From NCBI GenBank assembly GCA_900546255.1, contig URCB01000041.1, positions 1-14,978 of the forward strand: a stretch of 14,978 nt of DNA. The letters are read 5' to 3'. This document shows, piece by piece, positions 1-14,978 of this stretch. How positions within the stretch are numbered: the stretch's first letter is position 1; the number at the start of each line of letters is the position of its first letter. The stretch comes from an uncultured Eubacteriales bacterium (GTDB taxonomy: Bacteria; Bacillota; Clostridia; Oscillospirales; Oscillospiraceae). The position numbers and the translations under genes were made by a program. The notes beneath the pieces are model-generated. The model was not told the origin of the DNA and made no database searches. It saw nothing but the letters and a program-made list of their open reading frames with translations.

Positions 1-150
1 CCCGGGGCGCTGCGCCCCGAGGCACCGGAAAAGCCCCGACCACCCGAAGGGTACGTAGTACCCTACCGCACCCCCGCCCGGGACCGGGCGGGAAAACCAC
101 CTCGCAGGGCTGGACCTGCGATGGTCCAAGACCGGACCACCTGCCGCTCC
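1..150 (-). repeat. Structured dispersed repeat, copy A (runs off the left edge)
   Basis: Read on the minus strand, this starts just after the stop codon of the ferritin-like gene and forms five successive hairpins. Stem 1 is TGGTCC/GGACCA (122-127 with 134-139). Stem 2 is CGCAGG/CCTGCG (103-108 with 115-120). Stem 3 is CCCGCCCGG/CCGGGCGGG (73-81 with 84-92). Stem 4 is GGGTAC/GTACCC (49-54 with 58-63). Stem 5 is CGGGGCGC/GCGCCCCG (3-10 with 12-19). The same hairpins in the same order occur at 14664-14830 (copy B), and the first three recur at 14860-14953 (copy C). In my hand alignment 57 of 63 bases of the stem 4 to stem 5 half match copy B, and the differences cluster between the stems. I do not recognise the family. 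It could be an RNA element, a REP-like repeat or a small mobile element. Confidence 0.75.
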
Positions 151-163
151 CGCCGCAGCTGTT

Positions 164-841
164 TCAGCACAGTTGTTCTACCAGCGCCCGCACCCGGCAG
201 GCCTGGTCCCAGTTCTCCTGGGCGTGGTCCCAGAAGAGCTGCCGCAGGCAGGGGTCCTCGGTGGCCTCCGCCCCGGCCAGGTAGGCCGCCATGGCCGCCT
301 GCTCCTGGCCGAACCGCCGGCGGAGGGCCCCTAAGTACGAGGGCATGGGGGGGCAGGGGGCGGCCTCCGGCCAGTAGCGCACCCCGGCGATGAGGAAGTA
401 GGCCGCCGAGACCTTCCTGGCCCGGCGCTTCTTTTCCCCGGCCAGGGCCGCCAGCACCCGGGCCGGGGCGCCGCTGGCCCGGCGGGCCAAGGTCTGATAC
501 TCCCGGCCGTCTGCCAGCTCCCGGCGGATGAGGGACTGGAGCAGCGGGGCGCACTCCAGGCACCCGGGGCCCAGCACCCCCGCCGTCTCCGCCTGGGGGA
601 AATCCCCCCGGGGCTGGGGGGCGGGGCAGGCCACCGGCAGGGCGGGCTGCCCTGCCCCCTCCCCGGGATCGGCGGGCGCAGGGGCCGGGTCAGCGGCCGT
701 CTCTGCCTGAGGGACAGGGTCGGTCCAGGTCAGGGGGCAGGCCGCCTCCTGGCCGGCCATCACCCGTTTCCAGACCCGGGCGAAAATGGCCTGCTTCTCC
801 TGTTCCGAGGGGTTGGGGGCAGTTTGGGTGGTGTGTTCCAT
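164..841 (-). CDS. Ferritin-like domain protein, 225 aa, with low-complexity N-terminal linker
   Basis: The first ~30 residues (MEHTTQTAPNPSEQEKQAIF and following) are followed by a Pro/Ala-rich linker to about residue 90. A helical C-terminal region then runs from a CLEC motif and LLQSLIRRELADGREYQTL through SAAYFLIAGVRYWPE to the end. The helix pattern and the SAAYFLI..RYWP stretch resemble the rubrerythrin/ferritin-like proteins common in Oscillospiraceae, so an iron or redox role is possible. The classic ExxH ligand pairs are not visible: where EKxH would be expected the sequence reads EKKRRARK. Metal binding is therefore doubtful. The start at 841 is chosen because AAGGAGGT lies just upstream of it; an ATG at 868 would place that site inside the gene. 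It is divergent from rny. Its 3' end abuts repeat copy A, with no ordinary U-rich terminator. Family assignment is moderate, function unknown. Confidence 0.6.
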   Translation of the reverse strand: MEHTTQTAPNPSEQEKQAIFARVWKRVMAGQEAACPLTWTDPVPQAETAADPAPAPADPGEGAGQPALPVACPAPQPRGDFPQAETAGVLGPGCLECAPLLQSLIRRELADGREYQTLARRASGAPARVLAALAGEKKRRARKVSAAYFLIAGVRYWPEAAPCPPMPSYLGALRRRFGQEQAAMAAYLAGAEATEDPCLRQLFWDHAQENWDQACRVRALVEQLC

Positions 842-946
842 GGGATGACCTCCTTTTCGTTTCCCCATCCTATGCCAAAGGCCGCCCTTGTGTCCGCCAG
901 GGGAGCATTTCCTAGAAGTTTTTCCCTGCCGGGGGGCCGAAGGATC

Positions 947-14640: not shown

Positions 14641-14663
14641 CACATTTGGACGGCTCTGAGACA

Positions 14664-14830
14664 GGGGCGGGGGCCCTCTGTCATCGGTAGGCGGTCCCGT
14701 TGGGACCGGCGCAGGGTGGGCCCTGCGGCGTGGGTTCCCGCCCGGGGCCGGGCGGGGGGGCGGTGGGGTACTGCGTACCCTTCGGGTGGTCGGGGCTGTT
14801 TCGACACCTCGGGGCGCAGCGCCCCGGGGG
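14664..14830 (+). repeat. Structured dispersed repeat, copy B (most complete)
   Basis: The hairpins are CGGTCCC/GGGACCG (14692-14698 with 14702-14708), GCAGGG/CCCTGC (14711-14716 with 14721-14726), CCCGCCCGG/CCGGGCGGG (14737-14745 with 14748-14756), GGGTAC/GTACCC (14766-14771 with 14775-14780) and CGGGGCGC/GCGCCCCG (14810-14817 with 14819-14826). Order and loop sizes follow copy A. The 5' lead (GGGGCGGGGGCC then CTCTG...CGGTAGG) is shared with copy C. No ORF with coding character overlaps it. Confidence 0.75.
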
Positions 14831-14859
14831 GGCCGCCTGCCCGGCGGGGTCTCCCAGGT

Positions 14860-14953
14860 GGGGCCGGGGGCCTCTGCTGTCGGTAGGTGGTCCCTTCTGG
14901 ACTGCCGCAGGTTAGCACCTGCAAGGTGGGTTCCCGCCCGGTCCCGGGCGGGG
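14860..14953 (+). repeat. Structured dispersed repeat, copy C (lacks the 3' half)
   Basis: It shares the 5' lead with copy B, then GGTCC/GGACT (14889-14893 with 14899-14903, with a G-T pair at the base), GCAGGT/ACCTGC (14907-14912 with 14917-14922) and CCCGCCCGG/CCGGGCGGG (14933-14941 with 14944-14952). After stem 3 the similarity stops; stems 4 and 5 are missing and a palindrome follows. B and C are in direct orientation, 29 bp apart. Confidence 0.7.
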
Positions 14954-14958
14954 ATCCA

Positions 14959-14978
14959 GGCTTTCTCTAGAGAAAGCC
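14959..14978. other. Perfect 20-bp palindrome at the right edge
   Basis: GGCTTTCTCT is followed at once by its exact reverse complement AGAGAAAGCC. As RNA it would form a stem with a small loop. It may be the stem of a terminator whose T-run lies beyond the window, or a protein-binding site. The window ends here, so this cannot be decided. Confidence 0.7.

What the first reader, a model, noticed from the sequence alone, without database searches (positions are those of the whole stretch)
14664..14953. Undescribed(?) dispersed repeat with five ordered hairpins and covarying stems
Copies A (1-150, inverted), B (14664-14830) and C (14860-14953) keep the same stems in the same order while bases change. 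The outer pair of stem 1 is T-A in A, C-G in B and T-G in C. The inner pair of stem 2 is G-C in B and T-A in C. Stem 3 is invariant. Between A and B the differences sit mainly in the linker between stems 4 and 5. Paired changes point to selection on RNA (or cruciform) structure rather than on sequence. I recognise no Rfam class or REP family. It might be a small RNA, an mRNA 3' stabiliser (copy A abuts a stop codon) or a non-autonomous mobile element.
Basis: partly seen in the sequence, partly recalled or inferred. Interest (0 to 1): 0.72.

Follow-up and report, generated by a model that had tools for sequence, protein, structure and literature searches.

The report
Hairpin-ended mobile DNA in gut bacteria
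The repeated hairpins at the two ends of this stretch are the outer ends of a larger self-folding, protein-free DNA element, found in dozens of copies in this group of gut bacteria, that appears to have jumped into the gaps behind genes and may carry its own stop signals for transcription.

Summary
The repeats are real but are pieces of something larger. The window belongs to a sister species of Candidatus Evtepia faecavium. There the A/B/C sequence is a ~70-bp end unit, sometimes tandem, of a ~0.5-0.8-kb foldback element without a shared ORF. E. gabavorous has at least 30 copies of an element with the same plan. A model of the conserved arm (two hairpins joined by GGAAAGAA) matches 11 of 16 Evtepia genomes and 21 of 120 family genomes. 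At six of eight sites compared, relatives have 0-146 bp where E. gabavorous has 606-997 bp, so copies look like lineage-specific insertions, mostly near stop codons. The covariation claimed for the window stems is weak over 60 units. In the arm's first hairpin it is strong (14 distinct stems, 66 of 70 pairs; shuffles 35.1±5.8). The second hairpin plus T-rich linker is an outward terminator-like signal at both ends of 4 of 4 elements scanned. No Rfam match or target-site duplication was found, and no Y1/RAYT gene in the two copy-rich genomes. Best reading: a new family of MITE-like foldback elements with outward terminators. The mobilising enzyme is unknown; mobility and terminator function are inferred.

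The parts
1..157 (-). Copy A: outer end of an element that continues beyond the contig start; one end unit plus outer hairpins; 7 nt from the stop codon of the gene at 164-868 (-)
   Evidence: nhmmer end-unit hit 97-147, 94-nt inverted match to B, gap to gene
   Evidence: sequence; same motif in 15 of 15 left ends aligned
   Evidence: sequence
   Evidence: sequence; inside a 23-nt perfect inverted match, 72-94 to 14931-14953
14664..14850 (+). Copy B: left-type outer end (end unit plus outer hairpins), without the arm that follows in the aligned G001 copies
   Evidence: end-unit hit 14681-14733; alignment of 15 G001 copies
14681..14733 (+). end unit U of copy B: hairpin II form (GGTCC..GGACC) plus GCAGG..CCTGC hairpin
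   Evidence: nhmmer, pair counts
14737..14756 (+). hairpin CCCGCCCGGGGCCGGGCGGG (stem 3 of copy B)
   Evidence: sequence
14766..14780 (+). hairpin GGGTACTGCGTACCC (stem 4 of copy B)
   Evidence: sequence
14811..14825 (+). outer hairpin GGGGCGCAGCGCCCC (stem 5 of copy B)
   Evidence: sequence; in 15 of 15 left ends
14851..14978 (+). Copy C: end unit (14878-14929), outer hairpin 14933-14952 and start of the right-type arm; runs off the contig end
   Evidence: nhmmer; 14952-14978 is found exactly in 22 of 308 loci, some of which overlap
14959..14978 (+). hairpin 1 of the double-hairpin arm (GGCTTTCTCTAGAGAAAGCC), cut at the contig end
   Evidence: identical to arm hairpin 1 of several sister-genome copies, e.g. 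L143, L145, L172

Best explanation
The repeats are the outer ends of non-coding, MITE-like mobile foldback elements. Each element is a large imperfect palindrome. From outside to inside each end has: (i) a ~65-70-bp hairpin end unit, in one or more tandem copies; (ii) GC-rich outer hairpins; (iii) a conserved arm: hairpin 1 (TTTCT..AGAAA core), linker GGAAAGAANNC, hairpin 2 (CCAGGGG..CCCCTGG type); (iv) a lineage-specific interior that pairs with the other half. Shown: copy number, architecture, arm conservation with compensatory changes, and long lineage-specific sequence at sites that are short in relatives. Inferred: copies spread by transposition with an enzyme supplied in trans that recognises the hairpin ends and leaves no detectable target duplication. 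They are tolerated behind stop codons because hairpin 2 and the T-rich linker, read outward, act as a transcription terminator at each end.
For: 15 G001 copies align; 25 G001 copies measure 502-799 bp; the fold of one (L146) has z -13.8 against 20 shuffles. E. gabavorous (G003) has 30 copies of at least 290 bp plus 2 further pieces at contig ends; 27 were aligned. Eight G003 copies were compared with G002, G004, G006 and G009. At six, at least one relative has a 0-146-bp gap against 606-997 bp in G003; for the other two the shortest gaps with both flanks matched were 272 bp (against 681) and 230 bp (against 1268). In three aligned junctions the G003-specific sequence starts at or within about 10 nt of a stop codon. 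Gene ends within 150 nt of 27 G003 copies: 30 stops, 10 starts; 0 divergent sites. Within 100 nt of 25 G001 copies: 18 stops, 7 starts. Arm hairpin 1: 451 of 475 cells paired in 95 of 96 arms; 14 distinct stems keep 66 of 70 pairs, shuffles 35.1±5.8, max 59 of 10000. Arm model R1: 11 of 16 genus genomes, 21 of 120 family genomes with G001 among them. Terminator-like scan of L254: 48 sites against 12.2±3.1 in shuffles; all 8 arms of its 4 elements are hit, pointing outward.
Against: No mobilising enzyme was found. No target-site duplication was detectable over 23 copies, and end conservation fades gradually outward. No transposition event was seen; the comparison is between species, so deletion in relatives is not formally excluded, and at one of the six sites (first copy in L255) G003 also has about 0.4 kb of other sequence that G006 lacks. 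Some relatives have 1.4-2.1 kb of other material at these places. Copies cluster on some E. gabavorous contigs (24 of 32 on 230 kb, 3.0 expected), which local duplication or conversion could also give. The T-tract is interrupted (TTCTTTCC): at least 5 T of 8 in only 20 of 46 G001 arms, 25 of 25 G003 arms and 23 of 25 others, with some hairpins misparsed. Weaker inward-pointing terminator-like sites are flagged at outer hairpins too. The stem parse picks the anchor with most pairs and shuffles were not re-anchored; compensatory changes in palindromes can also arise by templated correction without selection.
Confidence: 0.7

Rival explanations
1. A functional structured RNA (small RNA or 3'-UTR stabiliser) selected at each locus, with copies spread by duplication.
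For: Arm hairpin 1 keeps pairing through compensatory changes; copies sit 3' of genes, between stop codon and native terminator in one case; very stable fold.
Against: Interiors and end units differ between species; sites are short in relatives; no Rfam family. A common host gene or promoter was not searched for.
Confidence: 0.12
2. A REP/REPIN-type system: inverted hairpin units moved as a pair by a RAYT (Y1) tyrosine transposase.
For: Inverted hairpin end units, one solo unit seen and tandem units, mosaic order, no target duplication.
Against: No Y1_Tnp match in G001 or G003, the genomes with most arms (136 and 96); the four genus genomes with Y1_Tnp have 24 (G002), 16 (G004), 17 (G006) and 0 (G007) arms; units are 65-70 bp and the whole is 500-800 bp, against 20-40 bp for REPs (PMC3733652, abstract start and passages). 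Assemblies are incomplete.
Confidence: 0.06
3. Ordinary MITEs: internally deleted copies of a conventional DDE insertion sequence still present in the genus.
For: Long terminal inverted repeats, no shared coding capacity seen, intergenic, high copy number.
Against: No target duplication; ends are variable arrays rather than a fixed terminus; no IS with these ends was met, but no search for DDE transposases was made.
Confidence: 0.2

Closest known systems
BOX, RUP and SPRITE elements of Streptococcus pneumoniae (small repeats; SPRITE is terminator-like)
   Same: Small intergenic repeats; SPRITE carries a rho-independent-terminator-like sequence; clustering and nesting reported (PMC10969869, passages). 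That BOX has a variable number of inner modules is recalled, not from a call.
   Different: Other host lineage; here the repeated modules are at the outer ends, arms are inverted at both ends with outward terminator-like signals, and the whole is larger. Their sequences were not compared directly.
MITEs of prokaryotes (for example those of Coxiella, Porphyromonas)
   Same: Non-autonomous, inverted ends, intergenic, many copies (PMC10969869 passages; PMC5896051 and PMC4596501 listing and abstract start only).
   Different: No parent transposase and no target duplication found; termini are hairpin units of varying number.
REP / BIME / REPIN with RAYT
   Same: Palindromic units in inverted pairs and mosaics, near gene ends (PMC3733652 passages; PMC3116915 listing and abstract start only).
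   Different: Unit 65-70 bp, element 500-800 bp, no Y1_Tnp match in the copy-rich genomes.

Membership tests
MITE | no protein-coding capacity, less than about 1 kb | tested here: met
   no shared ORF in the three elements examined (L109, L110, L095); 502-799 bp, about 518-550 bp in G003. One arm-flanked 1.45-kb element, L298, does carry ORFs
MITE | terminal inverted repeats | tested here: met
   inverted arms; 217-bp TIR in L298
MITE | target-site duplication | tested here: not met
   no direct repeat at any offset over 23 G003 copies (46 ends); the only high value comes from the hairpin itself
MITE | shares ends with an autonomous IS | tested here: inconclusive
   of transposase families only Y1_Tnp was searched; assemblies incomplete
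MITE | insertion into pre-existing sites (empty sites in relatives) | tested here: met
   6 of 8 copies compared; between species, one site with extra sequence
REP/REPIN-RAYT | RAYT (Y1_Tnp) in the genome | tested here: not met
   0 matches in G001 and G003, 4 of 16 genus genomes positive; the control rings in 5 of 14 genomes
REP/REPIN-RAYT | 20-40-bp palindrome with GTAG or CGTC tag | tested here: not met
   unit about 70 bp; CGTC stands before the hairpin in some of the 60 rows only (seen, not counted)
Rfam RNA family | score above a family's gathering cut-off | tested here: not met
   gathering search of the window, 0 matches; E-value searches, listed matches all below gathering
intrinsic terminator | GC-rich hairpin followed by T-rich tract | tested here: met
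   8 of 8 arms of the 4 elements in L254 flagged, outward; at least 5 T of 8 in 68 of 96 arms
intrinsic terminator | stops transcription | not testable with these tools
   needs RNA data or a reporter

The most novel reading that the evidence does not exclude
An Oscillospiraceae-wide class of 'mobile terminators': selfish foldback elements that make their insertion harmless by bringing an outward transcription terminator at each end, moved by a hairpin-recognising enzyme that is neither Y1/RAYT nor a conventional duplication-leaving transposase. Cargo-bearing relatives (L298) encode ribbon-helix-helix proteins that might bind the arms.
Probability: 0.3. Interest if true: 0.75.

Novelty: new variant of a known kind. 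Interest (0 to 1): 0.55.

Why it matters
The elements occur in dozens of copies in gut bacteria known mainly from metagenome assemblies. They probably break short-read assemblies (both ends of this contig lie in copies), reshape the space between genes, and may set where transcripts stop. A conserved arm that a covariance model can trace across the family makes the mobilising enzyme and the terminator idea directly testable.

Tried and rejected
Exact-pattern scans with a 20-base core of copies A/B: 0 in viral contigs and 0 in genome contigs, although the sister genome carries diverged copies. No genome is held for the window. blastn against phages and plasmids: no match at 1e-5; at E up to 10 only short weak matches in 45 plasmid records. 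An exact pattern for the arm found only 1 of 300 family genomes; it was too strict and was replaced by the covariance model R1 (E-values rough by the tool's own note), which finds 21 of 120.

RAYT/Y1_Tnp: rejected as mobiliser for the copy-rich genomes. Target-site duplication: none. RNAalifold and mutual information on the end unit: no clear base-pair covariation; most top signals are not base pairs and follow mosaic subtypes. Hairpin 2 of the arm was parsed less cleanly (100 of 115 cells over 23 outer stems, some misparsed) and is not used as evidence of covariation. A link between the arms and DUF6809 genes: one clean case, L298, where the DUF6809 score is below Pfam's cut-off. The two further DUF6809 places in the same genome have arms nearby but no clean bracket, so it stays a lead. 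The inward control for T-tracts had too few bases to be useful. In one search the copy number on one contig was mistyped (7 for 6); one search repeats it correctly.

Paper searches for a published description found none in the titles and abstract starts listed: (PubMed Central open papers only). Passages were read in PMC3733652 and PMC10969869.

Full report
WHERE THE WINDOW COMES FROM. The window is a 14,978-bp contig with no genome held. Its purine nucleoside phosphorylase (PF01048) is 97% identical to that of the MAG Candidatus Evtepia faecavium (L001, which lies in genome G001). The DNA of the two contigs is 89% identical over 5.3 kb and 84% over 4.2 kb, so I take it as a sister species (inference). 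Homology to L001, L002 and L003 upstream of this gene stops at window 14649-14651, just before copy B.

THE OBSERVATION. The three copies are present. Taken alone they do not fold clearly better than shuffled sequence. In G001 copy B has 44 matches (40 of 130 candidates scored), and 0 in the seven other genomes given. Pairs of matches in inverted orientation led to the real unit: a foldback with no shared ORF in the three elements examined. With a 741-bp query G001 has 93 matches, and 6 of the 15 other genus genomes have only short weak ones. Fifteen copies were aligned; 25 copies measure 502-799 bp. The fold of one has z -13.8 against 20 shuffles. Copies A, B and C are outer ends of such elements. 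The window stops inside them at both sides, as expected if repeats broke the assembly (inference). Copy C ends in hairpin 1 of an arm; its last 27 bases occur exactly in 22 of 308 loci, some of them overlapping.

THE END UNIT. 67 nhmmer hits of the ~70-bp unit were found in the fetched loci and the window. After leaving out duplicate loci and hits under 30 bits, 60 were aligned. RNAalifold keeps one 5-bp stem with 0 of 5 pairs changed on both sides. Pair counts for stems 1-2 are mixed. Cells paired, cells with two-sided change and covariation score exceed most shuffles (1, 12 and 6 of 500 reach them), but the number of pairs with two-sided change does not (478 of 500 reach it). For the alternative hairpin alone it is 7, 206, 93 and 470 of 500. 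The tool notes that related sequences can exceed such shuffles without structure.

THE ARM. Inside the end units each element has an arm of two hairpins joined by a GGAAAGAANNC linker. 97 distinct full-length arms from 8 genomes were collected from 166 hits; one was dropped before alignment as over-long, leaving 96. Hairpin 1 could be parsed in 95: 451 of 475 cells pair. Fourteen distinct stems keep 66 of 70 pairs against 35.1±5.8 in 10,000 shuffles, max 59. Its second and third pairs each occur as C-G, G-C, T-A and A-T. The parse chose the 3' anchor with most pairs, which favours pairing somewhat, and templated correction between palindrome halves could produce such changes without selection (inference).

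DISTRIBUTION. Model R1 of the arm matches 11 of 16 genomes of the genus at E up to 0.001: 136 matches in G001, 96 in G003, 24 in G002, 23 in G008, 22 in G009, 17 in G006, 16 in G004, and 6, 4, 4 and 1 in G005, G011, G013 and G010, the last two weak (150 candidates scored per genome, so lower bounds). In 120 family genomes 21 match at 1e-5, G001 among them (42 candidates scored each). In 299 phylum genomes 3 match at 1e-6, of which G001 and G081 belong to the family sample (16 candidates scored each), so sensitivity falls with sample size. Of 20 fetched family places, two arms face each other in 9 (L287-L292, L298, L301, L305); in 2 (L293, L296) the second arm is weak; in 2 (L300, L302) the two arms face away from each other; 7 show one arm in the short stretch fetched.

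MOBILITY. E. gabavorous (L003, in G003) has 30 copies of at least 290 bp plus two further pieces at contig ends. I compared eight copies on two stretches with four relatives (the list was capped). At six of them at least one relative has a short gap: 84 (G004) and 80 (G006); 55 (G009); 72 (G004) and 126 (G006); 0 (G006); 56 (G009) and 44 (G006); 146 (G004). G003 has 606-997 bp at these sites; at the site with gap 0 this includes about 0.4 kb of other sequence that G006 lacks. For the other two the shortest gaps with both flanks matched were 272 bp (G002, against 681 bp) and 230 bp (G004, against 1268 bp); G004 also has 83 bp at the first of these, but a neighbouring stretch is missing there. 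Some relatives have 1.4-2.1 kb of other material, or part of an element of their own, at these places. In three aligned junctions the G003-specific sequence starts at or within about 10 nt of a stop codon, once before the native terminator. No target-site duplication appears and end conservation fades outward. G003 copies are clustered: 24 of 32 on five contigs of 230 kb, 3.0 expected.

CONTEXT AND A POSSIBLE MECHANISM. With a simple ORF caller, 27 G003 copies give 6 convergent, 13 tandem, 0 divergent and 8 undetermined sites; gene ends within 150 nt are 30 stops and 10 starts. For 25 G001 copies of at least 500 bp it is 18 stops and 7 starts within 100 nt. A terminator-like scan of 13 kb of G003 finds 48 sites against 12.2±3.1 in shuffles, and all eight arms of its four elements are among the strongest, pointing outward; weaker inward sites are flagged at outer hairpins too. 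The conserved linker, read outward, is the T-rich tract (NNTTCTTTCC). At least 5 T of 8 follow hairpin 2 in 68 of 96 arms (20 of 46 in G001, 25 of 25 in G003, 23 of 25 others). So a transcript entering from either side would meet a terminator-like signal at the far end. That these stop RNA polymerase is inferred.

THE MOBILISER. Y1_Tnp has no match in G001 and G003 and matches in 4 of 16 genus genomes. One 1.45-kb element in G071 (L298) has 217-bp inverted repeats, 81% identical, containing the arms, around ORFs with RHH_1 and NikA-like matches above cut-off and a DUF6809 match below it. It is a lead for a cargo-bearing or autonomous relative, not proof.

COMPARISON. Nothing in the window reaches an Rfam gathering score, and the matches listed in E-value searches of window and relatives lie below theirs. 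The elements work like MITEs and, in their terminator-like ends, like the pneumococcal SPRITE; in their repeated hairpin units they recall BIMEs/REPINs. They are not filed as REP/REPIN (no Y1_Tnp match, other size). MITE membership stays open: target duplication was tested and not met, and no parent IS is known.

Noticed in passing
window 1 and 14978: Both contig ends lie inside copies of the element, and the sister contig L001 also begins at the same place upstream of the phosphorylase gene; short-read assemblies probably break at the repeats.
   Followed up: partly
L121 and L214 (E. gabavorous): One element copy lies within about 0.2 kb upstream of an ORF that looks like dnaA (name recalled from its first residues).
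   Followed up: no
G003 contigs C19, C3, C30, C14, C66: Copies are strongly clustered on a few contigs (24 of 32 on 230 kb) while a 344-kb contig has one.
   Followed up: partly
L003:4150-4290 and L002:6720-6830: A TATAAT-preceded, GC-rich hairpin region similar in two Evtepia species upstream of the phosphorylase gene looks like a separate structured RNA; no Rfam match in L003.
   Followed up: partly
L298:530-1394: RHH_1/NikA-like and DUF6809-like ORFs bracketed by 217-bp inverted repeats carrying the arms.
   Followed up: partly
L255:8990-9060: A solo end unit (about 65 bp) without core, between two genes in E. gabavorous, so end units also occur alone.
   Followed up: no
window 14827-14880: Copy B passes into copy C without the arm found in the aligned G001 copies: a mosaic junction, or an assembly chimera.
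   Followed up: no
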